Shown one piece after another: positions 1 to 57,673 of a stretch of 64,000 nucleotides of DNA (position 1 is the stretch's first letter; each line of letters opens with the position of its first letter). The stretch comes from Bacteroides bouchesdurhonensis. Lineage in GTDB: Bacteria > Bacteroidota > Bacteroidia > Bacteroidales > Bacteroidaceae. A program made the position numbers and the translations under genes. The DNA lies in contig NZ_LT707006.1 of assembly GCF_900155865.1 (NCBI RefSeq), forward strand, positions 27,751 through 91,750, given 5' to 3'. The notes beneath the pieces were generated by a model that was not told the origin of the DNA, searched no databases, and saw only the letters and a list, made by a program, of their open reading frames with translations.

Positions 1-27
1 ATTCTCAGGGTCCTGTCCATACCGCAG
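1..27 (-). repeat. Left copy of the crossover repeat (inverted)
   Basis: Read on the minus strand, this edge gives CTGCGG followed by TATGGACAGGACCCTGA and four more bases. The 21 bases at 1-21 are the exact reverse complement of 4540-4560 inside the DUF4965-type gene. The CTGCGG part (22-27) is also found next to the silent copy at 13760. By inference this is the start of a third 3' cassette that runs leftward out of the window, so only its first bases are visible. Being inverted relative to 4540, it would support inversion of about 22-4539. Confidence 0.8.
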
Positions 28-217
28 TCTTGCAAACAATGTATTGTATATCAATTTGTTACATAAAAATGTATTGTCTTTGTGTTGTGTTTTTTATACT
101 ATGTCTATGTACTAAAGAAGTTTATTATAGATATGAAAGTATAATAGTAATATGACATGTTTATAATTAAAACATATACTGATGCTCATCTCTTAAATTG
201 GCGAATAAACATCTTGT

Positions 218-316
218 AAGTAACTGTTCACAATTAGTTAATGTTATCCGTCATTCTTCGCTTCGCTCCTTTAGATAGATACTCATGATACATATTAATT
301 AGGAATACTAACTTAT
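218..316. repeat. Degenerate direct repeat, copy 1
   Basis: By eye this aligns with 638-727. Shared blocks include AAGT-ACTGTTC-CAATTAGT-AATG near the start and CTCATGATA followed by ATTAATTAGGAA near the end. Copy 1 carries about a dozen extra bases (TTCGCTTCGCTCC) in the middle. Origin and role are unknown. Confidence 0.55.
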
Positions 317-415
317 TTGATTAATTTATTACGCTATAAAGAAGGCTCTGCATAGTCTATTTTTTGAAAAATAAGAATATTATTGTAGTTTTTCTTTCAG
401 ATATTAAAGATTGGT

Positions 416-478
416 TAGTTCCTCGGTGAGAAACAACTTGTTTCTCACCGAGGAACTATTTGTTTCTTTTAAAGAAAC
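416..478. terminator. 43-bp perfect palindrome plus an adjacent short palindrome
   Basis: Positions 416-436 and 438-458 are perfect 21-bp inverted arms around one central base. They are followed by an 8-bp pair (462-469 and 471-478, GTTTCTTT / AAAGAAAC) around one base. The stem could act as a terminator in either direction for the recombinase and for whatever lies to the left, although no long T-run follows directly. A cruciform or protein site is an alternative. Confidence 0.5.
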
Positions 479-637
479 TATGTCTTGGCTTTAAATCAAA
501 ATACGAAATTTACAACATGTTAATTATTAACCTTTTATAGAAATAAAGCACTACCTTTGATAATTATAGGATGATTATTGACAAATAAGCTAAGATTTAT
601 AACCAGCAATGAATAGTAAAATATATTTTTATTACAT

Positions 638-727
638 AAGTTACAGTTCGCAATTAGTCAATGCTGTCTATTATCCCCTTAAACAACAGATGCTCATGAT
701 ATGAATTAATTAGGAACACTTACCTAT
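638..727. repeat. Degenerate direct repeat, copy 2
   Basis: This is the partner of 218-316, offset by about 420 bp, with several substitutions and without the central GC-richer insertion. It lies just beyond the 3' end of the recombinase gene. Confidence 0.55.
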
Positions 728-815
728 ATCATCTTGTTTATTATAGTATGAACATGTAGAATAAAATAGTATATGAATAATTTAAATCATAATATAAAAA
801 CAAATCTTTTTAATT

Positions 816-2099
816 TTATTGGGCAAGTCTAGCCCTCAGTTCCTTCAATCTATTAGCGGCTTGCAGATTATCAACTTTGATATATCGCATAAAAGCAGAT
901 GGACTTTTGTGACCAGATATTCGCATCAATTCTTCTGCAGGAAAACCTGATAAATACATATTCGTACAAAAAGAGCGTCTACAAGTATGGGAGTATATTA
1001 GTTCCCATTTTTCGTATATTCGTTTTTCTCGTTCTTTGCCTTTTTTACGAACTATTTCAACTTTCTGTCTTAACTTCGCTTTTAGTCCCAACTCTTTTAC
1101 CCTATCATTAAATAAATATCTTGGTATTTTGGGTAATTCATAATTGTATTTTTTAAGAATCTCTGGAACATAATCAATCATGGGAATAATAACTGCCTTA
1201 TGTACTTTTCTTTGTTTAAGGTTTATATTTCCATTATCCAAATCAATGTGTTCTGGACCTAAAGTTGAAAGATCACTATATCGTAAACCTGTAAAACATC
1301 CAGTGATAAATATATCGCGTATTTTCTCCAATTGCTTATCATCCGATAGATCGAGCTCGTATATCGCTGCTAATTCTTTTTCACTTAAATAAATAGCATC
1401 AGTTTCTTCCTCTACAACTTTGAAACATCTTAGATCAATTGGCGGAATGGCTCCTTTTACAATCTGAAAATTAACAAATCCTTTCAATAATCGTATAATT
1501 TTCCCTGCAGAGTTAGTGAGTAATCCTTTTGTTCCATTTGGCTTTTCAGCTTTATAGAATAAATAATCCATGAATTCATTGTAAAATGTCAAATTCAAAT
1601 TATGAAATGACAAAGGTTGAGATGAATATTCCTTAAAAGCAATTAGATGTTTACGAAGTGTTCTATAATCTTTGATCTGATCTTTAGAAACAGATGGAGC
1701 CTTTTCTATAATATATCTTTCTAATGCATCAAATATATCTATTCGATGGGAACGCAAATCATATTCCCTATCTTTTTCCAATTCGAGCAAAACAAAATCA
1801 ACAGTCGGATCTAGATTATTATCTTTAGCATAAGTAAGAATTTTGCCAAGTTTTGATGTGATTCTAATTAAACAAGAATCAATTTCTTCGTATTGTGGAC
1901 AAGCACGTTTAATCCATCTCTTCTTGGCATCCCAATATTCAGGTTTAATATTGTATCCAGTAGAGATGAGTGTACGTTTAAACCGATCATAATTATATCG
2001 AATATAAAGAACTGTAGTGCCCTCTTGAGTAACGTACTTTGGTTTAATATATGGAAAATATTTTGCTATAGTGATCTGTATTGCATTCGTGTTGCAAAT
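816..2099 (-). CDS. Tyrosine recombinase/integrase, putative local invertase; start codon missing or non-canonical
   Basis: This is a phage-integrase-family recombinase, expected to cut and rejoin DNA through a tyrosine. The C-terminal part carries the catalytic set: Arg in TGLRYSDL, a Lys in the KQRKVHK strand, HTCRRS, GHKS, and Tyr in MRYIK. An open frame continues upstream of the first usable codon (TTG at 1790) back to a TAA at 2102-2100. It encodes a plausible arm-binding N-terminus (YIRYNYDRF, STGYNIKPEYWD), which would give about 427 residues, normal for Bacteroides integrases. Those extra 103 codons contain no ATG, GTG or TTG. Either a rare start such as the ATA at 2081 is used, or the start was lost and only a shortened product from 1790 could be made. 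Its place between the crossover repeats at 1-27 and 4540 suggests that it is, or was, the recombinase of this locus. Confidence 0.8.
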   Translation of the reverse strand: MCNTNAIQITIAKYFPYIKPKYVTQEGTTVLYIRYNYDRFKRTLISTGYNIKPEYWDAKKRWIKRACPQYEEIDSCLIRITSKLGKILTYAKDNNLDPTVDFVLLELEKDREYDLRSHRIDIFDALERYIIEKAPSVSKDQIKDYRTLRKHLIAFKEYSSQPLSFHNLNLTFYNEFMDYLFYKAEKPNGTKGLLTNSAGKIIRLLKGFVNFQIVKGAIPPIDLRCFKVVEEETDAIYLSEKELAAIYELDLSDDKQLEKIRDIFITGCFTGLRYSDLSTLGPEHIDLDNGNINLKQRKVHKAVIIPMIDYVPEILKKYNYELPKIPRYLFNDRVKELGLKAKLRQKVEIVRKKGKEREKRIYEKWELIYSHTCRRSFCTNMYLSGFPAEELMRISGHKSPSAFMRYIKVDNLQAANRLKELRARLAQ

Positions 2100-2105
2100 T
2101 TAAGA

Positions 2106-2628
2106 AAGCTATCTAAAACAGCAAATATCTCTTTAGTTAAAGTTGATGATTGCTCATGCTTTTATAATTTTCTTTAAGCTAAGGAAAATATCTGTTCATA
2201 AAAGGATAAATATTGCTCAAACGGCATAGAGACCTCTATTTATTGAGTCTAAAAAAGGAGAAAAACATAAAAAAGAGCAGATTTTATCCTTTCTTGACCA
2301 TAGATTTTCCTTATTTTTTATATTAATTGTCTTATTTTGTATCGATCGAAATAAAATGCTATGGGAAATAACTAGCCTTTACAGGTTTTATGTCTACTCA
2401 AGATACACAAAACAGTAGTACTTTTCTCCATAACATTCTATTCAAGATTTGACAATACTGGTATTTGTTAATAGGTAAAAAGAAAAAATAAAAGTATTAA
2501 GGATTAAAGTTTTCATTAAGGTATTATTTAAGGTAAGAAGAAATTTAGCTAACATGGGGTTGTTTTATTATTAAGGTAAGAAGATTGTAGGATGGATAAC
2601 CTTAAATTTTAGATTAATTAAAAGAATT
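2106..2628 (+). promoter_or_regulatory. Divergent upstream region of the DUF4965-type gene with TTAAGG repeats
   Basis: No gene is seen here. TTAAGG occurs at 2497, 2516, 2528 and 2571 on the plus strand, and inverted as CCTTAA at 2600. The longer TTAAGGTAAGAAGA is present twice, at 2528-2541 and 2571-2584, 43 bp apart (about four helical turns). A regulator-binding role is inferred. I found no convincing Bacteroides TTTG / TAnnTTTG promoter pair. The region lies inside the putative invertible segment, so the promoter would travel with the 5' module. Confidence 0.45.
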
Positions 2629-5142
2629 ATGAAGAAACTACTAATTATGATGGCTCTTTCTGTTAGTATGCTGATTAATGCTCAGACAACTAACTTTTTT
2701 GAACCTGTTAAAGAAATAGCACTACGTGTCCCGTCAGTGCCAATTGTTGTTTCAGACCCATATTTTTCAATTTGGTCTCCTTATGACAAATTGATGGAAG
2801 GGAGTACAGAACATTGGACAAGTGCAAAGAAGCCTTTATTGGGTGCCCTACGGGTAGATGGTAAAGTATATCGTTTTCTAGGTAAAGATAAAATAAATTT
2901 AGTCCCGATTGCCCCTATGACAAATGTAGAACGTTGGGAAGCAGCTTATACGAATAGCACACCATCTAATGGATGGCAAGAATTTCAATTTGATGATAGC
3001 AGTTGGAAAAAAGGAAAGGCTGCTTTTGGTAGCCACGATATGCAACGGGTTCACACTGAATGGAAAGGGAATGATACTGATATTTATATTCGTCGCGAAT
3101 TCGATATTAATAATTTAGATTTAGCAGAAGATTTTTATTTAATTTATTCTCATGATGATGTATTTGAACTATATCTCAATGGGGAAAAATTAGTTTCTAC
3201 AGATCTAGTTTGGAGAGACAATGTGTATTTGAAACTGACTGATGCAGCAAAGAAAAAATTGCGTAATGGTAAGAATGTGATTGCTGCTCATTGCCACAAT
3301 ACTACAGGAGGTTCCTATGTGGATTTTGGTTTATTCCGTGAAAAGAAAGATGCCGTAAAGTTCTCTGATGAGGCTATTCAAAAATCTGTAGATGTATTAG
3401 CGACTTCTAGTTATTATACTTTTACCTGTGGTCCTGTAGAGCTCGATCTCGTTTTTACAGCTCCTCAGTTGATTGATGATTTGGATCTATTATCCACACC
3501 TATTAATTATATATCCTATCGCGTACGAGCACTTGATCAGAAAGGTCATGATGTACAACTCTATATGGAAACTACTCCAGAATTGAGTATTAATGAGAAT
3601 AATCAACCTACTATTGCACGTACGTTATCTAAAAATGGTATTAGTTATGTTGAGGCTGGGTCCATTGATCAGCCAATATGTGATCGTAAAGGTGACTTAA
3701 TTTGTGCAGATTGGGGTTACGCATACCTTGCTAGTGTAAATGGAGCTGGGAAATCTATAGGTTTAGGCGATTATTATAGAATGAAAGAATCGTTTGTAAA
3801 AAACGGAAGTTTAAATTCCACTATTACAAAATGGACTACTCGCAAAGAAGAGGATAATCCAGCTATGACTTATGTACATAATTTAGGTATAGTTTCCAAG
3901 GATAGCAAAGAGGGATTCATGATGATTGGTTATGATGATATCTATTCTATTGAATATATGTATGAAAAGCGTATGGGATATTGGAAGCACGACGGTAAAG
4001 TAACCATATTCGATGCTTTCGAGAATTTGAGAGATAATTATCAACCAATTATGGAGCGTTGCCGCGCTTTGGATGCGATGATTTATAATGACGCAGAGAA
4101 AGCAGGTGGCAAAAAATATGCTGAAATCTGTTCGGCTGCTTATCGTCAGGTAATGTCAGCCCACAAACTCTTCAAAGATAAAGAAGGTAACTTGATGTGG
4201 TTTTCAAAAGAGAACAATAGTAATGGTTGTGTTAATACAGTGGACTTGACTTATCCATCTGCTCCATTATTTTTGATTTATAATCCTGATTTACAGAAAG
4301 CAATGATGACTAGTATTTTTGAATATAGTGCTAGTGGTCGTTGGAATAAACCTTTCCCAGCTCATGACTTAGGAACATATCCTATAGCTAACGGACAAGT
4401 TTACGGAGGCGATATGCCTATTGAAGAAGGTGGTAACATGGTTATTCTAGCTGCAGCTATCTCAAAAATTGAAGGAAATGCCGATTATGTAAAAAAATAT
4501 TGGGGTATTTTAACCACGTGGACTAATTATTTAGTAGAGTATGGACAGGACCCTGAGAATCAACTTTGTACGGATGACTTTGCGGGTCATTGGGCGCATA
4601 ATGCGAACTTGTCAATAAAAGCTATTATGGGTGTTGCCGGATATAGTGAGATGGCACGTCTACTTGGTTTGGATGATGTTGCGGACAAATATGCTGTTAT
4701 TGCCAAGAATATGGCGGTGAAATGGGAAGAAATGGCAAACGAAGGTGATCATTATCGTCTTGCTTTTGACCGTAAAGATACTTGGAGTCAAAAATATAAT
4801 ATGGTTTGGGATAAAATCTGGAACCTGAATCTCTTCCCCAATAACGTAATCGAAAAAGAAATCAAGTATTATCAGACCAAGCAGAATCTTTATGGTTTGC
4901 CTCTGGATTCTCGCAAAGAGTACACTAAATCGGACTGGATTATGTGGACAGCGGCAATGGCACCTGACCAGAATACATTCGAGAAGTTTATAGATCCCCT
5001 TTATAAATACATTGATGAAACAAAAACTCGTGTACCTATCAGTGACTGGCATCATACGGATAGTGGTGAATGGGTTGGTTTTAAAGCTCGTTCTGTAATC
5101 GGTGGATACTGGATGAAGGTACTTATGGATAAAGCTCGATGA
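2629..5142 (+). CDS. GtaA/DUF4965-family secreted protein (glutaminase A-like), expressed full-length copy
   Basis: The protein has 837 residues with a signal peptide (cleavage after about residue 18, LINAQ). By family knowledge the order is DUF4964, a galactose-binding-like jelly-roll insert (about residues 95-235, with DDSSWKKG and YLNGEKL), DUF5127, DUF4965 and DUF1793. Fungal relatives are called glutaminase A, but Bacteroides members sit in glycan loci and their substrate is uncertain. The crossover sequence at 4540 encodes YGQDP from residue 638, so the last 200 residues form the exchangeable module; these reappear almost unchanged at 13766-14368. The stop is 36 bp before the next gene, and the reading direction and short gaps suggest it leads the cassette A operon. 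Both ends of the gene look intact. Confidence 0.85.
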   Translation: MKKLLIMMALSVSMLINAQTTNFFEPVKEIALRVPSVPIVVSDPYFSIWSPYDKLMEGSTEHWTSAKKPLLGALRVDGKVYRFLGKDKINLVPIAPMTNVERWEAAYTNSTPSNGWQEFQFDDSSWKKGKAAFGSHDMQRVHTEWKGNDTDIYIRREFDINNLDLAEDFYLIYSHDDVFELYLNGEKLVSTDLVWRDNVYLKLTDAAKKKLRNGKNVIAAHCHNTTGGSYVDFGLFREKKDAVKFSDEAIQKSVDVLATSSYYTFTCGPVELDLVFTAPQLIDDLDLLSTPINYISYRVRALDQKGHDVQLYMETTPELSINENNQPTIARTLSKNGISYVEAGSIDQPICDRKGDLICADWGYAYLASVNGAGKSIGLGDYYRMKESFVKNGSLNSTITKWTTRKEEDNPAMTYVHNLGIVSKDSKEGFMMIGYDDIYSIEYMYEKRMGYWKHDGKVTIFDAFENLRDNYQPIMERCRALDAMIYNDAEKAGGKKYAEICSAAYRQVMSAHKLFKDKEGNLMWFSKENNSNGCVNTVDLTYPSAPLFLIYNPDLQKAMMTSIFEYSASGRWNKPFPAHDLGTYPIANGQVYGGDMPIEEGGNMVILAAAISKIEGNADYVKKYWGILTTWTNYLVEYGQDPENQLCTDDFAGHWAHNANLSIKAIMGVAGYSEMARLLGLDDVADKYAVIAKNMAVKWEEMANEGDHYRLAFDRKDTWSQKYNMVWDKIWNLNLFPNNVIEKEIKYYQTKQNLYGLPLDSRKEYTKSDWIMWTAAMAPDQNTFEKFIDPLYKYIDETKTRVPISDWHHTDSGEWVGFKARSVIGGYWMKVLMDKAR
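4540..4560 (+). repeat. Crossover repeat in the intact gene
   Basis: This copy starts with TATGGACAGGACCCTGA, is identical over 21 bases to the inverted copy at 1-21, and shares 17 bases with 13766-13782. It lies in frame and encodes YGQDPEN, so a switch at this point would keep the reading frame. Upstream bases (GTAGAG) differ from the CTGCGG found at the other two copies, as expected for an expressed versus a silent junction. Confidence 0.85.
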
Positions 5143-5178
5143 GATGATTAATTTACAATACACTTATTATTAACTAAA

Positions 5179-6708
5179 ATGAAAAACATGAAATGTAAAA
5201 TGAAAAAAGTATTGAAGGAGTGGCAGTGGGTACTACTGGCATTATTCACGATTTGCATTTGCAGTTGCAAAGATGATGATGACAATGCAAATGCAGTAGC
5301 TTTTGATCCTTCGAAACCCGTGTTGATCTCTGATTTCACACCTAAGAAAGGTGGAACCGGGCAGCGTCTGGTTATCTACGGAGAAAATTTTGGATTGGAT
5401 AAGTCGTTGGTCAATGTTATGATCGGTGGGAAAAAAGCTACTATTATTAATGTTAATAACAATAGTATTTATTGTTTAGTCCCATCACAAGCTTATGACG
5501 GTGACATTAAAGTGATAGTCGGAGAAGAAGAGAACCAAGTGACTGGTATATCGGAAAGTATCTTTGAATATGAGAAAAAGATGGTAGTAGGTACATTATG
5601 CGGCTATCGTAATGAATATGATAATCAGGGCTGGAAAGATGGTTCTTTTGACATCTGTTGCGGGTTTCGTAATGATGGATGTTTGAAGTTTGATCCGCTG
5701 TATCCTGATCACCTGTACGTTGTATATGACGGTGCTGATATTCAATTGTTGGATTTGAAGAATCGAATGCTTTCTACTCCGTTAAATCGTTCATCATTTG
5801 GGGATAGACGTTTGCGTTCGCTTGACTTCACAAATGATGGACAATATATGGTTGTAGCTGTCGATTTTAATGGTTGGGGTACTGGAACTAGTCCAAGTGT
5901 ATATTTCGTGAAGCGTAATGAAGATGGTTCATTTACGAATAATAGTAGTATTCAGTTAATTGCTTCTTATAAACAATGTAATGGTGCTGCTCTTCATCCG
6001 ATAAATAATAACGAACTATACTTTAATAGTTATGAACGCGGTCAGGTATTCCGTATGGATGTATCCAAATACTTTGAAACAATTAATAATGGTGGTAATT
6101 GGAATCCTGACAGAGATGGCGGGAATTATGACGAATTATTTACAATTCAGGACACTGGTTGGGAATTCCAGATTAACATACATCCTAGTGGTAATTATGC
6201 CTATATTGTGGTAATTAATCAACATTATATTTTGCGTACTGACTACAACTGGGAAAAGAAACGTTTTGCTCCTGCTTACGTTGTTGCTGGACAGGCGCGT
6301 TCTGCTGCATGGGAAGATGCTGCCGGAGTAAGTGCTAGATTAAATCGTCCATATCAAGGAATATTTGTAAAGAACCAAGAGTATGTAGATGAAGGTAGGG
6401 AAGATGTGTATGATTTCTATTTTTGCGATAATAAAAACCACTGTATTCGTAAACTATCTCCAGAAGGTATCGTAAGTACTTATGCTGGACGTGGAAACAC
6501 TACTTCTGTTGTTGACAATAATGTTTGGGGTACTGAGGATGGTGATTTACGTGAAGTTGCCCGCTTCCGTGATCCAAGTGGTATAGCTTATGATGAGAGA
6601 GACAATGTATTCTATATTTTGGATGTTGTAGGTCGTAAGATACGTACAATATCAATGGAAGGAGAAACGGGAACATCGGTAGATCTGGAATCAGGTAATT
6701 TTAATTAA
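5179..6708 (+). CDS. IPT/TIG and NHL-type repeat outer-surface lipoprotein (cassette A)
   Basis: This 509-residue lipoprotein has a hydrophobic leader ending in CICSCKDDDD, a lipobox followed by acidic residues typical of surface export in Bacteroides. An IPT/TIG Ig-like domain covers about residues 45-130 (VLISDFTPKKGGTGQRLVIYGENFG). A beta-propeller of NHL-like repeats fills the rest, ending with RFRDPSGIAYDERDNVFYILD. Such proteins commonly accompany SusC/SusD and probably help bind glycan at the surface. The cassette B relative is at 15175. It lies 30 bp before susC. Other in-frame Met codons at 5188 and 5200 could also be the start. Confidence 0.8.
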   Translation: MKNMKCKMKKVLKEWQWVLLALFTICICSCKDDDDNANAVAFDPSKPVLISDFTPKKGGTGQRLVIYGENFGLDKSLVNVMIGGKKATIINVNNNSIYCLVPSQAYDGDIKVIVGEEENQVTGISESIFEYEKKMVVGTLCGYRNEYDNQGWKDGSFDICCGFRNDGCLKFDPLYPDHLYVVYDGADIQLLDLKNRMLSTPLNRSSFGDRRLRSLDFTNDGQYMVVAVDFNGWGTGTSPSVYFVKRNEDGSFTNNSSIQLIASYKQCNGAALHPINNNELYFNSYERGQVFRMDVSKYFETINNGGNWNPDRDGGNYDELFTIQDTGWEFQINIHPSGNYAYIVVINQHYILRTDYNWEKKRFAPAYVVAGQARSAAWEDAAGVSARLNRPYQGIFVKNQEYVDEGREDVYDFYFCDNKNHCIRKLSPEGIVSTYAGRGNTTSVVDNNVWGTEDGDLREVARFRDPSGIAYDERDNVFYILDVVGRKIRTISMEGETGTSVDLESGNFN

Positions 6709-6738
6709 TCAAAATCTAACGAATAAACACGTATTTAT

Positions 6739-9700
6739 ATGAAAAAGTATTTAATCATGTTTGCTGTGTTACTATGCATACCATTAACTATGTTAGCACA
6801 GCAAACTGTAACTGTGAGTGGTACAGTTACCGACACGAAAGGAGTACCTATGATCGGTGTCAATGTCTCTGTGAAAGATGTTGCAGGTCTGGGTGCTATC
6901 ACAGACTTAGATGGACATTATCATCTTAAGATGGAGCCTTATCATAAATTAGCTTTTACTTATATTGGTTATGAAACTGTTGAGATTTTAGTAAAAGATA
7001 AATATACTATTAATGTAGAGATGAAAGAGGCCGCTGCAAGTGCAATAGATGAAGTAGTGGTTACAGGTATGGGAACACAGAAAAAACTGACCGTTACCGG
7101 TGCAGTAACTAATGTGAAAGTGGAAGACTTGAAACGGTTCCCGACTTCTAATTTATCTAATGCACTAGCTGGTAATGTACCGGGAATCATCGCAATGCAG
7201 AATTCAGGGCAACCTGGAAAAAACACTTCTGAATTCTGGATCCGTGGTATTTCTACTTTTGGAGCTAGTAATAGTGCTTATATATTGGTTGATGGATTTG
7301 AACGTAATAATTTGGATGAGATTAATATTGAAGATATTGAATCATTCACTGTATTAAAGGATGCTTCAGCTACTGCTATTTATGGTTCTAAGGGTGCTAA
7401 TGGTGTAGTATTGATTACTACCAAACATGGTAAAGCTGGTAAAGTAAATATTAATGCTAAAGTAGAAACTTCGTATAATACACGTACTATTACTCCAGAG
7501 TTTGTAGATGGAAATACATATGCCAATTTAATGAATGAAGCTTGTGTTACTCGTAATAAAGGTTTTGTTTTTAGACCGGAAGAACTGGAGATTATACGTT
7601 TAGGCTTAGATCCTGATTTATATCCGAATGTAGATTGGATGGATGTACTGTTAAAAGATGGAGCTTGGAGTTATCGTGCCAACTTGAATTTAAGCGGTGG
7701 TGGTTCTACAGCTCGTTACTTTGTTTCCGCTAGTTATGTGGAAGATGAAGGTATGTACAAAACCGATGATACTTTGAAAAAAGATTATGATACGAATGCT
7801 AACTATAAACGTTGGAATTACCGTATGAATGTTGATATTGATATTACCAAAACGACTCTTTTAAAAGTAGGAGTATCGGGCTCTTTAGCTAAACGTAATA
7901 GTCCTGGATTAGGTGATAATGATGTATGGGGAGAACTTTTTGGATACAATGCTCTTAGTACTCCAGTACTATACTCCAATGGACGTATTCCAGCTTTAGG
8001 TACAGGAAATAAAACCAATCCATGGGTATCTGCTACACAAACTGGTTATAATGAAAATTGGGATAATAATATTCAGACCAATGTTACATTAGAACAGAAC
8101 TTTGATTTTATAACCAAAGGGTTACGTTTTGTCGGACGTTTTGGATATGATACTAATAATAGTAACTGGATTAACCGTCATCGTTGGCCAGACCAATGGA
8201 AAGCATTGAGCCGTAATCCCCAAAATGGAGAAATTGTTTGGGATCATGTATCCGGTCCAAGTGATATGTTTCAAGATAGTGGTTCGAGAGGAGATCGTCG
8301 CGAGTTTTTAGATTTATTATTAAGTTGGGATCGTGGTTTTAAAGATCATCATCTTGGTGCTACAGTAAGATATACACAAGATTCTAAAAAACAGACAGTA
8401 GATATAGGTACTGATATTAAAAATGGTGTAGCACGACGAAATCAGGGTTTAGCCGGACGCGTTACATACAATTGGAATTACCGTTATTTCTTTGATTTTA
8501 ATTTCGGTTATACAGGTTCTGAGAACTTTGCAACAGGACACCAATACGGATTCTTTCCTGCTTTTTCTGCAGCGTGGAATATCGCTGAAGAACCTATTGT
8601 CAAGAATAATCTAAAGTGGATGAATATGTTCAAAGTTCGTTACTCACATGGTAAAGTTGGTAATGACAATATGAATGATAGATTCCCATATTTGTATACC
8701 ATTCAGGATTGGTATAAAGATTCAAAGGATAAAACTCATGACCTTGCAGGTTATAATTGGGGAACAGCAGCATATTCTAATTATTATAAAGGTATACATT
8801 ATGCGCAGGTAGCTTCTCCATATATAACATGGGAAGTTGCTACTAAAGATGACCTTGGAATAGATTTATCATTATTCAACGATAAATTCTCTGCTACAGT
8901 AGATTATTTCTATGAAAAACGTACAGGTATTTATATGACACGCAAATTCCTGCCATTCATTACAGGATTGGAAAGTAAACCTAGAGCTAATGTCGGTGCA
9001 GTTCGTTCTAGAGGCTTTGATGGACATTTCTCATTAAAAGAGAAAATTGGGAATGTCGATATGACAATCCGTGGTAATATGACCTATAGTAAAAATGAAG
9101 TATTAGATAGGGATGAGGAAAATAAGGTTTATCCTTATCAATATGAACGTGGCTATCGTGTGGATCAAGAAAAGGGTCTTATTGCATTAGGATTGTTTAA
9201 AGACTATGATGATATCCGCAATAGTCCAAAACAGGAATTTGGAGTAGTACAACCTGGTGATATTAAATATAAAGATGTCAATGGTGACGGTGTTATTAAT
9301 AATGGTGACCGAGTTGCTATCGGTGCGACAAGACGGCCTAATCTGGTTTATGGTATTGGTGCTTCTGTTGCATGGAATGGGTTTGATTTTAATGTTCATT
9401 TCCAAGGTGCTGGTAAATCAACTTTCCCTATTTATGGCAAGTGTGTATTTGCATTTAGAGAAAATGACTGGGGCAATATCATGAAAGGTATGCTTGAAGA
9501 TCGTTGGGTAGATTCAGAAACTGCAGAAAAACTTGGTATCCAGGCGAATGAAAATCCGAATGCTCCTTATCCACGCTTAACATATGGTGTAAATGGGAAC
9601 AATGAGCAGGGGTCTACTTATTGGTTACGTAACGGACGCTATGTACGCTTGAAAAATGTAGATATAGGTTATACTCTTCCGAAAAATATAACGAATAAAC

Positions 9701-9852
9701 TTCATTTTAATAACATCCGTATATTCGTTGCAGGATCTAATTTAATTACTTGGTCAAGTTTCAAATTGTGGGATCCAGAATCAACTCAGCCACGTGGTGA
9801 AGAATATCCGTTGACTAAATCAATTACAATGGGTTTAACAGTTAATTTATAA
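6739..9852 (+). CDS. SusC-like TonB-dependent outer-membrane transporter (cassette A)
   Basis: The protein has 1037 residues with a signal peptide (MKKYLIMFAVLL...LAQ). A carboxypeptidase-regulatory-like domain follows (GTVTDTKGVPMIGVNVSV), then a plug (VDGFERNNLDE, IESFTVLKDASATAIYG, GANGVVLITTK) and a beta-barrel ending in an aromatic-poor VNL terminus. There is no STN signalling domain, so it is not an anti-sigma-coupled transporter. It would import oligosaccharides captured by the partner SusD encoded 14 bp downstream. The paralogue at 16578 is clearly related but much more diverged than the C-terminal DUF4965 repeat, which suggests a different ligand. Confidence 0.95.
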   Translation: MKKYLIMFAVLLCIPLTMLAQQTVTVSGTVTDTKGVPMIGVNVSVKDVAGLGAITDLDGHYHLKMEPYHKLAFTYIGYETVEILVKDKYTINVEMKEAAASAIDEVVVTGMGTQKKLTVTGAVTNVKVEDLKRFPTSNLSNALAGNVPGIIAMQNSGQPGKNTSEFWIRGISTFGASNSAYILVDGFERNNLDEINIEDIESFTVLKDASATAIYGSKGANGVVLITTKHGKAGKVNINAKVETSYNTRTITPEFVDGNTYANLMNEACVTRNKGFVFRPEELEIIRLGLDPDLYPNVDWMDVLLKDGAWSYRANLNLSGGGSTARYFVSASYVEDEGMYKTDDTLKKDYDTNANYKRWNYRMNVDIDITKTTLLKVGVSGSLAKRNSPGLGDNDVWGELFGYNALSTPVLYSNGRIPALGTGNKTNPWVSATQTGYNENWDNNIQTNVTLEQNFDFITKGLRFVGRFGYDTNNSNWINRHRWPDQWKALSRNPQNGEIVWDHVSGPSDMFQDSGSRGDRREFLDLLLSWDRGFKDHHLGATVRYTQDSKKQTVDIGTDIKNGVARRNQGLAGRVTYNWNYRYFFDFNFGYTGSENFATGHQYGFFPAFSAAWNIAEEPIVKNNLKWMNMFKVRYSHGKVGNDNMNDRFPYLYTIQDWYKDSKDKTHDLAGYNWGTAAYSNYYKGIHYAQVASPYITWEVATKDDLGIDLSLFNDKFSATVDYFYEKRTGIYMTRKFLPFITGLESKPRANVGAVRSRGFDGHFSLKEKIGNVDMTIRGNMTYSKNEVLDRDEENKVYPYQYERGYRVDQEKGLIALGLFKDYDDIRNSPKQEFGVVQPGDIKYKDVNGDGVINNGDRVAIGATRRPNLVYGIGASVAWNGFDFNVHFQGAGKSTFPIYGKCVFAFRENDWGNIMKGMLEDRWVDSETAEKLGIQANENPNAPYPRLTYGVNGNNEQGSTYWLRNGRYVRLKNVDIGYTLPKNITNKLHFNNIRIFVAGSNLITWSSFKLWDPESTQPRGEEYPLTKSITMGLTVNL

Positions 9853-9866
9853 AATAATACGAAATT

Positions 9867-11921
9867 ATGATAAAGAAACTATTTATATTACTGCTGGCCA
9901 TCTTTAGTGCAGGTGTGTTTTCATCCTGCAATGACTATTTGGAGTCAGACAAGTATTTCAAAGACCGTACTACTATTGAAGCGGTTTTTACAGATAGAGA
10001 TCGTACAGAGCAGTGGCTTGCTTATGCATATTCTTTTTTGAAGAATCAATGTGCTGATGTAGTGAGTAAAGATGCAGGTACAAGTAGCCATTGCTTTGCC
10101 GACGACATGTACTATGGGGACCGTGATATTGCATATGATCCTAAAGAAGGCAGTCAGCTTTCTTATAATAAATTCAAATTGGGAGAGTATAATGAGAATG
10201 AGTTTAATGAGGTTTGGCCTCGTTGTTATAAAGGAATCTACCAGGCTTCTGTCTTCATCCATAACATTGATATGAACCCAACCATGACTCCGGAGGAAAG
10301 ATTGGATTATAAAGGACAAGCCCGCTTTGTTCGTGCTTATTTTTACTGGTTGTTACTTCGTAAATATGGTCCAATACCTTTGATGCCGGATGAAGGAGTG
10401 GACTATACTCAAAGTTATGACCAGATTGCCACTCCTCGTAGTTCTTACGAAGAGGTTGCTGACTTCATTAGTGCTGAAATGGTACAAGCTGCCAAAGAGT
10501 TACAATATTTAAAACGTATGGATAACGAGAATATTGCTCGTCCAACTAAGGGTGCTGCATTAGCTACTCGTGCTTATGCTTTGATTTTTGCAGCAAGTCC
10601 TTTGGCAAATGGTAACAATGATGAGTTTGCACAAGCATTAGTAGATGATCAGGGACGCCGTCTCTTATCTCCTGAATACAATGAAGAAAAATGGGCAAAA
10701 GCAGCTGCAGCTTGTAAAGATGTGATGGAATTGGGAGTGTACGAACTTTATCATGCTTCATTCTCAAGTTCTGATAATGGACCTCAAGATCGTCCGACTA
10801 TTGTTCCACCTTCTGATAACAACTTCTCTACTAAAATCTGGCCAAATGGTTGGAAAGATATTGACCCTTTCAAATCTTATCGTAACTTATTTAGTGGTGA
10901 TGTGTCTGCTGTGGATAATCCTGAGTTGATATTTTCTCGTATTAATAATACAACTGATGGGGATTATGCAATTGAGGCATTGGTATTGCATCAGATGCCG
11001 CGAGATTTTGGTGGATGGAATACACATGGTTTAACACAGAAGATGTGTGATGCTTATTATATGAACAATGGTTCTGATTGCCCAGGAAAGGACAAGGAAA
11101 TCGGACGCGGTGATGGTTCTCAGCGTTTGACAGGTTTTACAACAAAAGAAGATGTTGAGAAAGGACTTTATAAGCCACTAAGCGAAAATGTTTCTTTGCA
11201 ATATGCAAATCGTGAACCTCGTTTCTATGCTTCGGTAGCATATAATGGGGCTGTTTGGAATTATATGAGTCGTACAGAACCAAATGATCGTAATCGGCAG
11301 ACTTTCTACTATCGTGGTTTAGGGAATGGTTTTATGAACTCGCCTTTCCATTTGCGTACAGGTATTGGCATTATGAAATTTGTTAATCCTGAGGATTCTC
11401 CAGGTAATATCAGGAAAAAACCAGAACCGGCAATTCGCTATGCTGATATTTTATTACTTTATGCAGAAGCTTTAAATGAATTAGATGGTACCTATAATAT
11501 TCCTTCTTGGGATGAATCGATGACTTATACGATTAGTCGTAATAAAGAAGAAATGCAGAAGGGTATTCATCCTGTACGTATTCGTGCCGGTCTTCCTGAT
11601 TATACAGAAACCCAATATGCAAATAAAGACGAATTACGTAAAGCATTGAAACGTGAACGTATGATTGAATTAATGGGCGAAGGCAAACGTTACTATGATC
11701 TCCGTCGTTGGAAAGATGCCCCAGTTGAAGAAGCATTACAAATATATGGTTGTAACGTGGTAATGGATGAAACACATCGAAATGAGTTTCATGTACCAAT
11801 TGCTATTTATAATTTGCCTTCTACATTCTCACCGAAAATGTATTTCTGGCCAATCAGGCATGATGAGCTGAAGCATAATAAACGTTTGACACAGAATCCT
11901 GGATGGACTATGTATGATTAA
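9867..11921 (+). CDS. SusD-like (RagB/SusD) surface glycan-binding lipoprotein (cassette A)
   Basis: This 684-residue lipoprotein has the lipobox at FSSCNDYLES. The N-terminal SusD-like part has the TPR-like helices seen in this family (GQARFVRAYFYWLLLRKYGPIPLMPDE). The C-terminal RagB/SusD part includes RYADILLLYAEALNE and RERMIELMGEGKRYYDLRRW. It caps the SusC encoded just upstream and selects the ligand. A DUF lipoprotein gene follows after 20 bp. Confidence 0.93.
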   Translation: MIKKLFILLLAIFSAGVFSSCNDYLESDKYFKDRTTIEAVFTDRDRTEQWLAYAYSFLKNQCADVVSKDAGTSSHCFADDMYYGDRDIAYDPKEGSQLSYNKFKLGEYNENEFNEVWPRCYKGIYQASVFIHNIDMNPTMTPEERLDYKGQARFVRAYFYWLLLRKYGPIPLMPDEGVDYTQSYDQIATPRSSYEEVADFISAEMVQAAKELQYLKRMDNENIARPTKGAALATRAYALIFAASPLANGNNDEFAQALVDDQGRRLLSPEYNEEKWAKAAAACKDVMELGVYELYHASFSSSDNGPQDRPTIVPPSDNNFSTKIWPNGWKDIDPFKSYRNLFSGDVSAVDNPELIFSRINNTTDGDYAIEALVLHQMPRDFGGWNTHGLTQKMCDAYYMNNGSDCPGKDKEIGRGDGSQRLTGFTTKEDVEKGLYKPLSENVSLQYANREPRFYASVAYNGAVWNYMSRTEPNDRNRQTFYYRGLGNGFMNSPFHLRTGIGIMKFVNPEDSPGNIRKKPEPAIRYADILLLYAEALNELDGTYNIPSWDESMTYTISRNKEEMQKGIHPVRIRAGLPDYTETQYANKDELRKALKRERMIELMGEGKRYYDLRRWKDAPVEEALQIYGCNVVMDETHRNEFHVPIAIYNLPSTFSPKMYFWPIRHDELKHNKRLTQNPGWTMYD

Positions 11922-11941
11922 TTTGTAATATAAATGAATAT

Positions 11942-12967
11942 ATGAAAAGAATATATACTTTAGTAACCCTAGTAGCTCTGATTATACTAGGAACTTCATG
12001 TAATGATGAATGGAAAGATGAGCAATATGAACAATACGTTTCTTTTCGTTCCCCATTAGACAGTAAAGGAGTAACAGAGGTTTATGTCCCATATAGTCGT
12101 AAGAATGCCGATGGTAGCTATACGGAAGGAAAATCGAACTATGAATTGCCGGTAATTGTTAGTGGATCGAATACTAATCAACAAAATATAACAGTTCATG
12201 TGGCACATGATCCTGATACGCTAGAAACATTAAATATCGCTCGTTTTCAAGAGCGTTATGATTTATGGTATCATGATTTAGAAGATGAACACCCGGAATA
12301 CGCATCTTTCCCAGAAAACATAGAGATTAAAGCCGGAGAAGATGTTAGTTTATTAAATATTGATTTTGATTTTAGAGGAATTGATATGTCAAAGAAGTGG
12401 GTGCTTCCATTAAAGGTTGTTGATGACTCTTCTTATGGCTATCAATCACATCCACGTAAAAATTATAGTAAAGCTATTTTAAGAATATTACCATTCAATA
12501 ATTATTCAGGAGTTTATTCTGGAGTAGCATTATTGAACTACATTAAGGGTGATGAAGGAAATGGCTCTATTATGGCAAATGATATTACTGGATATGTTGT
12601 AGATGAGAATACGATATTCTTTTATGCAGGTATAATTAATGAAGACCGCACAGACCGTGCTAACTACAAGATTTTTGCAGAGTTTTCTGGTGGTGAGACT
12701 GGAGGTATTGTTAATTTCTATGCAGAGAATGAAGAAATACATTTTGTGAATAACAAAGAAGCTTCTTATCGTATAATTGAGGATATGGACGCAACTCGTC
12801 CTTATTTGAAACGTCGTTATGTAATCATTAATAATATTGATTATGAATATACAGACTATACTTCTGTACCAGGAACAGGTATTACATATACAGTAAGAGG
12901 CTCATTAACACTTGAACGTCATATCAATACTCAGATTCCAGATGAAGATCAGGCTATTGAATGGTAA
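11942..12967 (+). CDS. DUF4973/DUF4361-type surface lipoprotein (cassette A)
   Basis: This 341-residue lipoprotein has its lipobox at LGTSCNDEWKDE. It is built of beta-sandwich-like segments and ends in IPDEDQAIEW. The family assignment is from recall of SusD-adjacent lipoproteins with this layout (ELPVIVSGS, KWVLPLKVVDDSSY, FNNYSGVYSG). It probably acts as an accessory surface glycan-binding protein, in the position of SusE/F. It is the last gene of the cassette A operon and is followed by a terminator. The cassette B paralogue is at 21817. Confidence 0.75.
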   Translation: MKRIYTLVTLVALIILGTSCNDEWKDEQYEQYVSFRSPLDSKGVTEVYVPYSRKNADGSYTEGKSNYELPVIVSGSNTNQQNITVHVAHDPDTLETLNIARFQERYDLWYHDLEDEHPEYASFPENIEIKAGEDVSLLNIDFDFRGIDMSKKWVLPLKVVDDSSYGYQSHPRKNYSKAILRILPFNNYSGVYSGVALLNYIKGDEGNGSIMANDITGYVVDENTIFFYAGIINEDRTDRANYKIFAEFSGGETGGIVNFYAENEEIHFVNNKEASYRIIEDMDATRPYLKRRYVIINNIDYEYTDYTSVPGTGITYTVRGSLTLERHINTQIPDEDQAIEW

Positions 12968-12993
12968 TAATATCAAGTAAGTAGAATAGAATG

Positions 12994-13035
12994 GGGAAGG
13001 ATAACTTTGTATCTAAAAGTTTCCTTCCCTTTTTT
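12994..13035 (+). terminator. Intrinsic terminator of the cassette A operon
   Basis: The arm GGGAAGGATAACTTT pairs, with one bulge, with AAAGTTTCCTTCCC, and six T residues follow at 13030-13035. It lies 27 bp after the stop of the DUF lipoprotein. Confidence 0.8.
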
Positions 13036-13747
13036 GTTATCATCCTCATTAGTATTCACTAATAAGATAGCAAATGCATCAAAATAAATACGTTTTCTCA
13101 CATTTGGTAGCATTCCTTGACAGAACCAAATTTGATTGCATTGTGGCAAAGCATGAGGAAAATAGATATATAAAGTATGTCACATCTTGGAATTAACTAA
13201 TTGCACCCCCAACAACCTACACTTGAGTTTGTGACCTAATGATCGGTTGAGACTTTATAATTACCCTTCATCTGGAGAAAGAATATACTTTATTGAAGTT
13301 AAAACCTTCTCTTATTGTTTGAATTTCTATTCATACGATATCTTAATTCTACAGTATAATAAAGACGAAAGTTCGATTTAATTTACTCATACAAATATCA
13401 CCCATTCATTTTACCAGTTGATCATATTTAGAAATAACAACATATCACTTCATTCCGGTCTGTTATTTTTCCTATCTATGTATAAATTTTATTTTCCCTA
13501 TTTATTGGATTATATTAAATAAACTCTAGTCTTGTTACTCTCATAATTGTACTTAGTCAGTAATGGTTCAATTAACCTTTTCATATAACTTTAGTGCATG
13601 CTCTCACACCTGATAAACAGATGAGTTGAGTAATAAAAGTTAGTTTCTTTTATTAAACAAAATATATTCTCGATTTATCAAGATAATCCCTTTATTAGAA
13701 TACGGGAATAGCACAAGTATAAATTAATTTATTGATATATAAGGTAT
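13036..13747. other. About 700 bp between cassettes A and B without a recognisable gene
   Basis: The stretch is AT-rich, with many stops in all frames and no gene or RNA that I can recognise. It directly precedes the start-less gene copy, and I see no clear promoter for cassette B. If the repeats recombine, this would be the junk flank exchanged with the expressed 5' module. Confidence 0.5.
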
Positions 13748-13750
13748 TAG

Positions 13751-14368
13751 TGCCATCTGCTGCGGTATGGACAGGACCCTGAAAACCAACTTTGCACGGA
13801 TGACTTTGCGGGTCATTGGGCGCATAATGCGAACTTGTCAATAAAAGCCATCATGGGTGTTGCCGGATATAGTGAGATGGCACGTCTACTTGGTTTGGAT
13901 GATGTCGCGGACAAATATGCTGTTATTGCCAAGAATATGGCGGTGAAATGGGAAGAAATGGCAAACGAAGGTGATCATTATCGCCTAGCTTTTGACCGTG
14001 AAAACACTTGGAGTCAAAAGTATAATATGGTTTGGGATAAGATATGGAACCTCAATCTTTTCCCCAATAACGTAATCGAAAAAGAAATCAAGTATTATCA
14101 GACCAAGCAGAATCTTTATGGTTTGCCTCTGGATTCTCGCAAAGAGTACACTAAATCGGACTGGATTATGTGGACGGCGGCAATGGCACCTGACCAGAAT
14201 ACTTTTGAGAAGTTTATATATCCTCTTTATAAATACATTGATGAAACAAAAACTCGTGTGCCTATCAGTGATTGGCATCATACGGATAGTGGTGAATACG
14301 TGGGGTTCAAAGCCCGCTCTGTTATCGGAGGATATTGGATGCAAGTAATGATAAACAAAATATTATGA
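13751..14368 (+). pseudogene. Silent C-terminal cassette of the DUF4965-family gene
   Basis: An in-frame TAG at 13748-13750 is followed by a few codons, and then by TAT GGA CAG GAC CCT, the same frame as residue 638 of the intact gene. It continues to a stop at 14368. About 200 residues match the C-terminus of the intact protein with only around ten differences, several in the last eight residues (WMKVLMDKAR versus WMQVMINKIL). There is no signal peptide, no N-terminal two-thirds and no good start, although a TTG at 13835 opens a shorter frame. By itself it is not expected to make a working protein. It is best read as a storage copy that becomes a gene when joined to the 5' module at 2629-4539. 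An ordinary truncated duplicate is the alternative. Confidence 0.8.
13760..13782 (+). repeat. Crossover repeat at the head of cassette B
   Basis: CTGCGG plus TATGGACAGGACCCTGA is shared, over 23 bases, with the minus strand of 27-5. The 17-base part is shared with 4540-4556. It has the same orientation as 4540, so direct recombination between these two would excise about 9.2 kb including cassette A. Confidence 0.85.
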
Positions 14369-15174: not shown

Positions 15175-16554
15175 ATGAAAAAGAAGACAAAAAGTAATGT
15201 TTGGCACATCCAATGGATGTTGTTAGCATTTGTCACTCTTTGCTTCACCGGTTGCAAAGACGACAATGAGGATCAAGGAGAAGCTTTTGATCCCAACAAA
15301 CCAATTGTCATTTCCGACTTTTCGGAAAAAAAAGGAGGAGTCGGTAATAACTTGATTTTATACGGAGACAACTTCGGCAATGACATCTCAAAGGTAAAAG
15401 TGACGATTGGCGGAAAAGATGCACGTATTATCACTGTAAAAAACAAGAGTATGTACTGTATCATTCCTCCAAAAGCCTACAATGGAGACATTCATGTAAG
15501 TGCTTTGGACGATAATGGACAAGTAATAAGTAGCGCAGAAGCTGAAAGCACTTTTGAATATGAAAAGAAATGGATGGTAAGTACCGCTTTCGGAACACAT
15601 TACGAAAATTCGAACGAATTCTTTGACATGAAAGATGGTTCACTTGATGCTGGAGGTGGTTTCGGTAATGTTTTCTGGTTTTCATGGGATCCATTGTCTG
15701 ATTACAATAAATTATATTTTACCAATGATGGAAAAACGACACGGTACCTTGACCTTGAAAAAAATGAAATAGGGACTTTCTCTCATGGTTTTGATAGGGT
15801 AACTGCCATGACTTGGACTTTGGATGGTGATCTTATTTTATCTCACAATCATTCAAGTGATACAAGAACAGCAAATTATCTGTACACACGGGAGTCTAAT
15901 TATAGCACTAGAGAAACCTTAGGTGGATATGCCCGTGGAGTCAATGGAAGTATGGTACATCCCATAAACGGTGAATTTTATTATTCCAGATATAGAGCGG
16001 GGGATATGTGGAAATATGATTTTGAGACTGGTGAAAGCAGTTTATGTTTTCAAAACCCATATTCAGGAGTTGCCATTTATCTGGTGCCCCATCCTTCCGG
16101 TAACTATGCATACATGTTGGAGCAAGAATTCTATTTCATTATGCGTACTGACTATGACTGGATTAGTAGAACATTTACGACTCCTTATGCTATTTGTGGA
16201 ACCGGAAATGCTTGGGGGTATTCTGATGGTATAGGAACGCATGCACAATTAAACAGACCTATTCAAGGAGTATTTGTGAAGAATCCGGATTATGCAGGTC
16301 GAGATGATGAATATGATTTTTACTTCTGTGATAAAAACAACCATTGTGTCCGTATTCTGACTCCCACCGGACGAGTTACAACATTTGCCGGACGTGGTAA
16401 TAACGGTACTTCCGGACTATTTGACGGAGAAGTTCGCACAGAAGCACGATTTAACGAACCGCGAGCACTGACTTTTGATCCGAAAAGAAACTGCTTCTAT
16501 GTAGGCGATGGACTGAATAAGATAATCCGTAAAATTGCGAAAGAAACTGAATAA
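15175..16554 (+). CDS. IPT/TIG and NHL-type repeat lipoprotein (cassette B)
   Basis: This 459-residue lipoprotein has its lipobox at CFTGCKDDNED. An IPT/TIG domain (VISDFSEKKGGVGNNLILYGDNFG) is followed by a beta-propeller ending in EARFNEPRALTFDPKRNCFYVGD. It is the paralogue of the protein at 5179 and about 50 residues shorter, mainly in the propeller. It probably binds glycan at the cell surface with the SusC/SusD pair that follows. The gap to susC is 23 bp. Confidence 0.8.
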   Translation: MKKKTKSNVWHIQWMLLAFVTLCFTGCKDDNEDQGEAFDPNKPIVISDFSEKKGGVGNNLILYGDNFGNDISKVKVTIGGKDARIITVKNKSMYCIIPPKAYNGDIHVSALDDNGQVISSAEAESTFEYEKKWMVSTAFGTHYENSNEFFDMKDGSLDAGGGFGNVFWFSWDPLSDYNKLYFTNDGKTTRYLDLEKNEIGTFSHGFDRVTAMTWTLDGDLILSHNHSSDTRTANYLYTRESNYSTRETLGGYARGVNGSMVHPINGEFYYSRYRAGDMWKYDFETGESSLCFQNPYSGVAIYLVPHPSGNYAYMLEQEFYFIMRTDYDWISRTFTTPYAICGTGNAWGYSDGIGTHAQLNRPIQGVFVKNPDYAGRDDEYDFYFCDKNNHCVRILTPTGRVTTFAGRGNNGTSGLFDGEVRTEARFNEPRALTFDPKRNCFYVGDGLNKIIRKIAKETE

Positions 16555-16577
16555 CAAATGATAAACACATTTTTATA

Positions 16578-19682: not shown

Positions 19683-19695
19683 ACAACAAAAACAT

Positions 19696-21792: not shown

Positions 21793-21816
21793 TCTTACAA
21801 CTTAAGAATATTGAAC

Positions 21817-24213: not shown

Positions 24214-24461
24214 AAGACAGTATCATAACCGCACAACGGAAAAAGAAAGAGTTGATCAATCTGTTAGTGTGCTTCATTATAGCCAATCTGGTCAATCTAT
24301 ATGCGATAATTACCTATCATACTCATTTTTTGGAGATGATAACTAGTATATTCTATATAATTATATTTACTTTTTTGATTTATGCCTTTTGGACAATTAT
24401 TCGTATATTCTTTTATGGTATAAAGGTATTATTTAAAAGAGAAAGTAAGATACAAAAATAG
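24210..24461 (+). CDS. Small two-helix membrane protein
   Basis: This 83-residue protein has two hydrophobic segments (about residues 16-35 and 44-68) and basic ends (QRKKKE; FKRESKIQK). The start overlaps the preceding oxidoreductase stop. I do not recognise a family. The coupling suggests a role next to the exported oxidoreductase, but this is inference. Confidence 0.6.
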   Translation: MKDSIITAQRKKKELINLLVCFIIANLVNLYAIITYHTHFLEMITSIFYIIIFTFLIYAFWTIIRIFFYGIKVLFKRESKIQK

Positions 24462-24518
24462 ACTTATACATTTGTAACTAATAAAAGGAAATACTTAATC
24501 AATATCAATGAACAAATT

Positions 24519-37733: not shown

Positions 37734-37750
37734 GTGTTTTATTAATTCAA

Positions 37751-41895: not shown

Positions 41896-42073
41896 AAAAT
41901 CACATTTACTATTTAACAGGCGAAAATACACATTTTGTACTGAAAAAGAGTTAAGTTTGCAGTTAAATATTGTGGCGATGTGCAAATATGCCAATCCACT
42001 AATAGGGTTACACTATAAACTCACACAAAATTTAGTAGATTGAGCAGTATATTGACAGATTAAACATTTATTT

Positions 42074-52246: not shown

Positions 52247-52312
52247 TGAATCATTCTGCCGATAATTCATAAAGGACAGGCACAATGACACTTTGATAAA
52301 CTGATAAATATT

Positions 52313-57636: not shown

Positions 57637-57673
57637 TCCATACCCGATATCATAAAATAAAACAGTGAAAACA

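What the first reader, a model, noticed from the sequence alone, without database searches (positions are those of the whole stretch)
1..13782. Putative three-way shufflon joining one 5' gene module to alternative C-termini and SusCD operons
Seen directly: TATGGACAGGACCCTGA occurs at 4540 inside an intact DUF4965-family gene, at 13766 at the head of a start-less copy of only its C-terminal part, and inverted at the window's left edge (21-5). A tyrosine recombinase gene and the gene's 5' two-thirds lie between the two inverted copies. The repeat encodes YGQDP in frame, so an exchange would keep the reading frame. Two of the three 3' cassettes are visible, each with its own IPT lipoprotein, SusC, SusD and DUF lipoprotein. 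Inferred: inversion of about 4.5 kb would connect the promoter, signal peptide and N-terminal domains to the left cassette. Two successive inversions would reach cassette B, while direct 4540 x 13766 recombination would excise 9.2 kb. The family background is SusC/SusD inversion by local recombinases in Bacteroides; in-frame switching inside this enzyme gene is, as far as I know, not a standard example.
Basis: partly seen in the sequence, partly recalled or inferred. Interest (0 to 1): 0.92.

Follow-up and report, generated by a model that had tools for sequence, protein, structure and literature searches.

The report
Enzyme-splitting switch for nutrient-uptake operons
A Bacteroides genome holds one front part of an enzyme gene and three alternative back parts, each leading its own nutrient-uptake operon, and a recombinase related to mobile-element integrases likely flips the front part from one to another, so that the cell would change its uptake system while rebuilding the enzyme each time.

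Summary
A separate 4,516-bp contig equals the front module exactly. Of 158 genus genomes, eight others carry orphan back parts like these, two of them single-contig; orthologous cassettes stand joined in one species and orphaned in another. The B. faecalis draft joins the identical front part to two different operons. In public proteins of one lineage, fronts at least 98% identical carry back parts under 95% identical in 209 of 301 pairs, against 0 of 210 and 0 of 105 in two control lineages. Orphan back parts, untranslatable as they stand, show purifying selection. The recombinases form a clade sister to island integrases, some of which sit at tRNA-Asp; the closest island att site matches at 21 of 23 bases. 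All ten shufflon-clade recombinases read AUA/AUC where 14 of 15 island integrases read AUG. In this genome the back parts are about 95% identical, so the operon changes more than the enzyme. Inversion by this recombinase, its rarity, and silence of the orphan operons are inferred. I file it as a new variant of the Bacteroides SusC/SusD shufflon.

The parts
5..21 (-). recombination site L, inverted; heads the left cassette, which lies outside the window (C1 about 19.2-27.75 kb)
816..2096 (-). tyrosine recombinase frame, likely starting at ATA about 2069; recalled catalytic residues R272, H370, R373, H396 and Y405 are present in the translated frame
2629..4539 (+). front part of the enzyme gene (signal peptide, DUF4964, DUF5127 and the start of the GtaA six-hairpin domain), shared by all states
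4540..4556 (+). recombination site A, encoding YGQDP inside the intact gene
4540..5142 (+). back part A of the enzyme, joined in this assembly
5179..6708 (+). IPT/TIG lipoprotein, cassette A
6739..9852 (+). SusC-type outer membrane protein, cassette A
9867..11921 (+). SusD-type lipoprotein, cassette A
11942..12967 (+). DUF4973 / BT_3987-like lipoprotein, cassette A
13766..13782 (+). recombination site B
13766..14368 (+). back part B of the enzyme, orphan: no start for this frame, in-frame TAG at 13748
15175..16554 (+). IPT lipoprotein, cassette B
16578..19682 (+). SusC-type protein, cassette B
19663..21792 (+). SusD-type protein, cassette B
21811..22836 (+). DUF4973-type lipoprotein, cassette B
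22921..25937 (+). two Gfo/Idh/MocA oxidoreductases behind cassette B; the second has an inverted twin behind cassette L
33720..37766 (-). hybrid two-component regulator at the end of the same gene group; that it governs the shared promoter is a guess

Best explanation
This is likely a three-way DNA-inversion switch in which a recombinase related to mobile-island integrases would flip a 4.5-kb module, holding its own gene and the shared front part of an enzyme gene, between three back-end cassettes, each with its own SusC/SusD operon. Shown by sequence: three sites in this genome, one of them inverted, each opening a homologous C-terminal arm and a separate operon of IPT lipoprotein, SusC, SusD and DUF4973-type lipoprotein. 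The shared core encodes YGQDP in frame, so an exchange there would keep the enzyme whole. Inferred: strand exchange inside TGGACAGGACCC. Inversion L x A would join the front to cassette L; two inversions (L x B, then A x B) would join it to B; A x B in direct order would delete cassette A. The proposed consequence is operon choice: one promoter and a nearly constant enzyme, with an exchangeable transporter, binding protein and lipoproteins. In one lineage that includes B. thetaiotaomicron the C-terminus itself differs by up to about 19%. Inferred origin: an integrase of a mobilizable island that targets tRNA-Asp, whose att core resembles the YGQDP codons. Inferred control: starting at AUA/AUC instead of AUG keeps the recombinase scarce.
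For: Left cassette present. Contig C7 equals window 23-4538 with no difference and ends where the shared sequence begins. Same architecture in eight other genomes of 158; the recombinase is found in 8 of the 9 genomes with orphan copies. Cassette E joined in G081 and orphan in G021; X joined in G043 and orphan in G001; D the reverse. B. faecalis draft: front part identical over 1,947 of 1,947 aligned bases (one 1-base gap) on cassette D (C12) and on cassette A (C40). Public proteins: 209 of 301 pairs against 0 of 210 and 0 of 105; the 200 residues before the site, 0 of 279. Orphan-orphan dN/dS 0.03-0.07 in seven pairs, no internal stop in 16 copies read; recombinase dN/dS 0.03-0.10 in five pairs. 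Recombinase clade sister to island integrases, 100/99; closest att match 21 of 23, 0 in 200 shuffles. Joined copies read TAT before the core, orphans TAT, TTT or TCT.
Against: No reads, no alternative joint seen inside this strain. C7 and the single N fit switching but could arise from assembly, since arms A and L are identical for 338 bp with the N set aside. Arm L is a mosaic of A-like and B-like sequence, so homologous recombination also acts here. In B. faecalis the recombinase is split by an insertion of about 1 kb, yet two joints occur, in a draft flagged 7% contaminated. This recombinase has no canonical start codon. G144 has three orphan cassettes but no recombinase or front part in its draft. 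Seven of 21 island loci showed no site at <=4 mismatches, and this genome has no other site of the att type at <=1 mismatch. The recombinase was not checked beside the swapped public proteins. A recalled promoter consensus found nothing before the front part.
Confidence: 0.82

Rival explanations
1. The arrangement does switch, but by RecA-type homologous recombination between the arms of about 650 bp; the recombinase gene is a passenger from an island.
For: Long arms in inverted order, A and L identical for 338 bp, arm L a mosaic; two joints in B. faecalis although its recombinase is split.
Against: The recombinase lies between the same two sites in the relatives read, is under purifying selection, and the joint coincides with a sequence like the att sites of its kin. 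First residue differences among joined and orphan copies place exchange at the core.
Confidence: 0.11
2. The orphans are relics of old duplications and nothing switches now.
For: Orphans have no start for the enzyme frame and no switching was observed in this strain.
Against: No internal stop in 16 copies read and orphan-orphan dN/dS of 0.03-0.07; swapped back parts behind identical front parts in public proteins, 16 of 29 pairs; opposite states between species. Gene conversion among arms could mimic part of the selection signal.
Confidence: 0.05
3. Assembly artefact around a repeat.
For: A single N at the left site and a redundant contig; draft relatives break at or near the same point.
Against: The same architecture stands in two single-contig genomes (G021, G043) and on a 3.75-Mb contig (G081) of other species.
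Confidence: 0.02

Closest known systems
Bacteroides fragilis SusC/SusD intergenic shufflon (region EE; invertase Tsr0667), seen through passages of PMC5729914 and PMC11852207; the primary paper is not held
   Same: Several susC/susD pairs, inverted repeats, a tyrosine-type invertase, and operon choice by inversion of larger segments
   Different: There the repeats overlap the susC start codon and lie downstream of an invertible promoter; here the joint lies inside an upstream enzyme gene that is rebuilt in frame, and the recombinase travels inside the inverting segment
Plasmid R64 shufflon (Rci), described from PMC11852207 passages and recall
   Same: One constant front part joined to alternative C-termini at several sites
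   Different: Here each C-terminus brings a whole operon; the gene product is an enzyme; no relation to Rci was tested
Integrases of mobilizable islands at tRNA-Asp in Dysgonomonas, Parabacteroides and Bacteroides
   Same: Sister clade to the shufflon recombinases; similar site
   Different: They serve islands with relaxase genes (two examined) and start at ATG in 14 of 15 read
Intragenic inversions in Bacteroides (Chanin 2024, seen only as cited in PMC12632263 and PMC12548429 passages)
   Same: An inversion with its end inside a coding sequence
   Different: Here complete back ends are exchanged together with the operons behind them, and a recombinase gene lies in the inverting segment

Membership tests
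SusC/SusD shufflon (Bacteroides) | several susC/susD operons in inverted and direct order sharing a repeat | tested here: met
   three in this genome, four back parts in G021
SusC/SusD shufflon (Bacteroides) | local site-specific recombinase | tested here: met
   recombinase gene in the module; found in 8 of 9 genomes with orphans
SusC/SusD shufflon (Bacteroides) | repeat over the susC start codon, as in region EE | tested here: not met
   the sites lie inside the enzyme coding sequence
SusC/SusD shufflon (Bacteroides) | inversion observed in the population | tested here: inconclusive
   no reads; two joints in the B. faecalis draft and opposite states between species
island integrase family (tRNA-Asp) | recombinase phylogeny | tested here: met
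   sister clades, 100/99; sister, not nested inside
island integrase family (tRNA-Asp) | insertion at a tRNA-Asp gene | tested here: not met
   the shufflon sites are in a protein gene; tRNA-Asp was seen in 3 of 12 island loci scanned
R64-type shufflon | constant N-terminus with alternative C-termini at one joint | tested here: met
R64-type shufflon | Rci-type recombinase | not tested
   no comparison with Rci was made
invertible promoter switch | the inverting segment carries a promoter but no coding joint | tested here: not met
   the joint at 4540 lies within a coding sequence

The most novel reading that the evidence does not exclude
A tRNA-Asp integrase has been captured as the invertase of an operon-choosing switch. 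It reads the codons of an enzyme's conserved YGQDP motif as its attachment site, so every exchange rebuilds the enzyme in frame while replacing the whole transporter operon behind it, and the invertase is kept scarce by starting at AUA/AUC instead of AUG throughout the lineage.
Probability: 0.5. Interest if true: 0.86.

Novelty: new variant of a known kind. Interest (0 to 1): 0.78.

Why it matters
It would show how a mobile-element integrase becomes a host switch, with site, relatives and lost start codon all visible in sequence. It also gives a design in which an enzyme is split at a fixed turn and its back end chooses the transporter operon, so a cell would keep its enzyme while changing surface receptors that nutrients, antibodies and phages meet. 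The joint is short and fixed, so state frequencies could be read from existing gut sequencing data, and carriers named B. thetaiotaomicron make it testable in a tractable species.

Tried and rejected
Exact 17-mer across 119 genus genomes: only this genome. Two relatives that carry it, G121 and G144, were not in that sample, and G103, which was, is cut at the site. Promoter scan with a recalled Bacteroides consensus: nothing before the front part, one match with a mismatch before site B, background 0.62 per kb per strand. PDB sequence search with the enzyme: no match at 0.001; the fold search gave GH116 glycosidases at TM 0.54-0.58 among the best, which suggests a glycoside-hydrolase-like enzyme but no substrate. 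I tested whether other small contigs also duplicate C1: the two tried (C4, C11), of the 18 besides C7, do not, apart from ends and partial homology. I first took the orphan beside the recombinase on B. faecalis C12 for cassette A; one search showed that its arm matches those of both A and D, so it is unassigned and not used. The 98.5% spans diverging operon sequence; the front parts alone are identical. Papers: eight searches listed none whose title or abstract reports this locus; I read passages of eight papers. Milman 2023 and Nakayama-Imaohji 2009 are not held, so an earlier mention is not excluded.
Full report
What is there. The window is C1:27751-91750 of a 5.3-Mb Bacteroides assembly. 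The 17-mer occurs three times in the assembly at up to two mismatches, all here: 5-21(-), 4540-4556(+), 13766-13782(+). It exists: C1:27177-27755(-) is a 95%-identical C-terminal copy of the enzyme, followed leftwards by an IPT lipoprotein, SusC, SusD and a DUF4973-type lipoprotein. Beyond it lie copies of a Gfo/Idh gene and a GH88-domain gene that also stand beyond cassette B (96.3% and 97.5% identical, inverted), so the L and B sides are partly mirror images.

The repeat is the head of longer arms. A-L share 648 bp at 94.3%, A-B 647 bp at 91.8%, B-L 807 bp at 94.7%; they start at or within a few bases of the core and cover the whole C-terminal part. Upstream of the 17-mer, A shares 1 base with the others, B and L share 6. 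The joint is sharp on one side and homologous on the other.

Assembly signs. Contig C7 (4,516 bp) equals window 23-4538 with no difference, that is, the module between the inverted sites, ending where the shared sequence begins; C1 has a single N at 27750 next to the left site. Both fit two arrangements in the culture. They do not prove it, since A and L are identical for 338 bp with the N set aside. Two of the other 18 small contigs, C4 and C11, were tested and do not duplicate C1 in this way.

Relatives. Of 158 genus genomes, 10 have a close recombinase (E <= 1e-120), 51 have a match to the C-terminal part at E <= 1e-60, and 9 have short orphan copies at about 80% identity or more: G000, G001, G021, G043, G052, G081, G103, G121, G144. 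The recombinase is found in 8 of these 9. G144 lacks it and the front part; its three cassette contigs begin at the site, so the module may be missing from that draft. One further short frame (G132, 261 aa, 65%) is not counted. The two recombinases without orphans are an island (G138) and a cousin locus (G152). By contig name and length G103 is B. faecichinchillae, G121 B. faecalis, G001 B. faecis, G052 B. reticulotermitis. G021 and G043, each a single contig, have four and three such C-terminal copies. B. faecichinchillae has a 4,532-bp module contig, cut like C7, and three cassette contigs that begin within about 100 bp of the site.

Opposite states. Cassettes were matched by SusC identity. 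E is joined in G081 and orphan after the recombinase in G021 (93%). X is joined in G043 and orphan beside the recombinase in G001 (94%); D is joined in G001 and orphan beside it in G043 (96%). In G001 recombinase and front part lie on two contigs, but each joint named is contiguous. In B. faecalis the front part on C12 and on C40 is identical over 1,947 of 1,947 aligned bases (C12 lacks one base) and leads to cassette D on C12 and cassette A on C40. Caveats: a draft, a 7% contamination flag, and a recombinase split by an unidentified insertion of about 1 kb on C12.

Public proteins. Of 2,716 homologs the best 120 were listed; 106 contain the motif with enough sequence on both sides and were used, 14 were dropped. 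Linked at 97.5% in the front part, one lineage of 37, including entries named B. thetaiotaomicron, carries 11 back-part types at 97%. Among its pairs with front >= 98%, 209 of 301 have back parts under 95%; among pairs with identical fronts, 16 of 29. Lineages of 21 and 15 give 0 of 210 and 0 of 105 (and one of 3 gives 0 of 3). In the 37-member lineage the 200 residues just before the site are under 95% in 0 of 279 pairs. P0004 and P0012 agree at 637 of 637 front residues and differ at 37 of 202 behind, the first at +25. Pairs are not independent; the recombinase was not checked beside these genes; the control lineages were not matched to a genome whose locus I read.

Selection. Orphan copies have no start for the enzyme frame. 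None of the 16 copies read, joined and orphan, has an internal stop. Of 12 pairs, 10 gave a dN/dS, all 0.03-0.13; the seven orphan-orphan pairs lie at 0.03-0.07, for example 59 synonymous and 14 nonsynonymous differences between two orphans of G021. This is expected if they are often expressed as part of the enzyme, or were until recently; gene conversion among arms may contribute. The recombinase gave 0.03-0.10 in five pairs; two pairs were saturated.

Where exchange happens. The joined copies read TAT before GGACAGG or GGGCAGG; orphans read TAT, TTT or TCT. In G001 the bases after GACCC differ between joined and orphan copies. Exchange therefore most simply lies within TGGACAGGACCC (inference). 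In the model (mean pLDDT 86.1) residues 639-641 lie between helices 625-638 and 642-645 of the helical domain. G639 and D641 are invariant in the 43-row alignment. Foldseek's best PDB matches are GH116 glycosidases at TM 0.54-0.58, so a glycoside-hydrolase-like enzyme is likely, substrate unknown.

Origin. The nine recombinases taken as shufflon type by their context form one clade, sister to 21 island integrases (100/99). A site within 4 mismatches of the 17-mer and reading GGTATGGACGG is seen in 14 of these 21 island loci; 7 show none, two of which (L043, L062) begin at or inside the gene. Of 12 island loci scanned for tRNAs, three hold a tRNA-Asp gene, and its 3' end carries GGCGGTATGGACGGGACTC. 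Two islands examined encode a relaxase; L042 also a CD-NTase and a patatin. CTGCGGTATGGACAGGACCCTGA, the sequence at sites L and B, matches the site of L052 at 21 of 23 bases (0 in 200 shuffles); that is the best of those scanned, others differ at 3-6 bases. This genome has no further site of the form GTATGGACNGGACYC at one mismatch, so its own tRNA-Asp does not offer that core.

Start codon. A script given 20 island integrases could read 15; 14 have ATG at the start position and L047 has ATA. All 10 shufflon-clade recombinases have ATA (5) or ATC (5) there; these include the cousin L045 and the split B. faecalis gene. This genome and B. faecis have no in-frame ATG, GTG or TTG upstream in the open frame; the other eight have TTG or ATG at varying distances, so a longer protein is possible there. 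I infer weak translation; that is untested.

Known kinds. B. fragilis region EE switches susC/susD pairs through repeats over the susC start codon (PMC5729914 passages; Tsr0667 in a PMC11852207 passage). [quoted passage not shown] another passage mentions nutrient-receptor shufflons in B. thetaiotaomicron (PMC12548429). This locus works like that kind but puts the joint inside an enzyme gene, carries its recombinase in the inverting segment and shows the recombinase's island kin. I call it a new variant.

Noticed in passing
L045 8601-12134 (uncultured Bacteroides; same locus as G152 C11): Cousin locus: a recombinase of the same clade lies between 167-bp inverted repeats (96%) at the 5' ends of IPT-type lipoprotein genes, with IPT-SusC-SusD cassettes on both sides and no enzyme front part found; a possible switch with another joint.
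   Followed up: partly
L042 1942-4027 and 8996-9919: An island with a related integrase carries a CD-NTase, a patatin-like phospholipase and a relaxase, as in a mobilizable anti-phage island.
   Followed up: partly
window about 2075-2100 and the same place in relatives: TTTGCAACACGAATGCAATAC-like sequence with a repeated TGCAA lies just before the recombinase start in shufflon and island genes alike; it might be arm or operator sites (seen by eye).
   Followed up: no
C1:17480-19104 vs 52065-53687 and 15903-17027 vs 56613-57737: Large inverted repeats (96.3% and 97.5%) around the whole locus, with Gfo/Idh and GH88-domain genes, could allow a larger inversion by homologous recombination.
   Followed up: partly
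L066 / L109 (B. faecalis): The recombinase is split by an insertion of about 1 kb and a further reading frame sits between recombinase and enzyme; the enzyme frame on C12 is also interrupted.
   Followed up: partly
C1:27177-27755 against C1:32290-32889 and 41516-42109: Arm L is a mosaic: identical to A for 338 bp with the N set aside, B-like near its 3' end, so gene conversion or crossing over acts within the arms.
   Followed up: partly
L083 (contig C4) and L089 (contig C11): Small contigs with unique middles and ends that recur many times on C1 (127 bp identical); they look like further unplaced variable segments of this genome.
   Followed up: no
window 14731-15147: A 138-aa reading frame of unknown kind lies between orphan B and the IPT lipoprotein, an extra gene in cassette B.
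   Followed up: no
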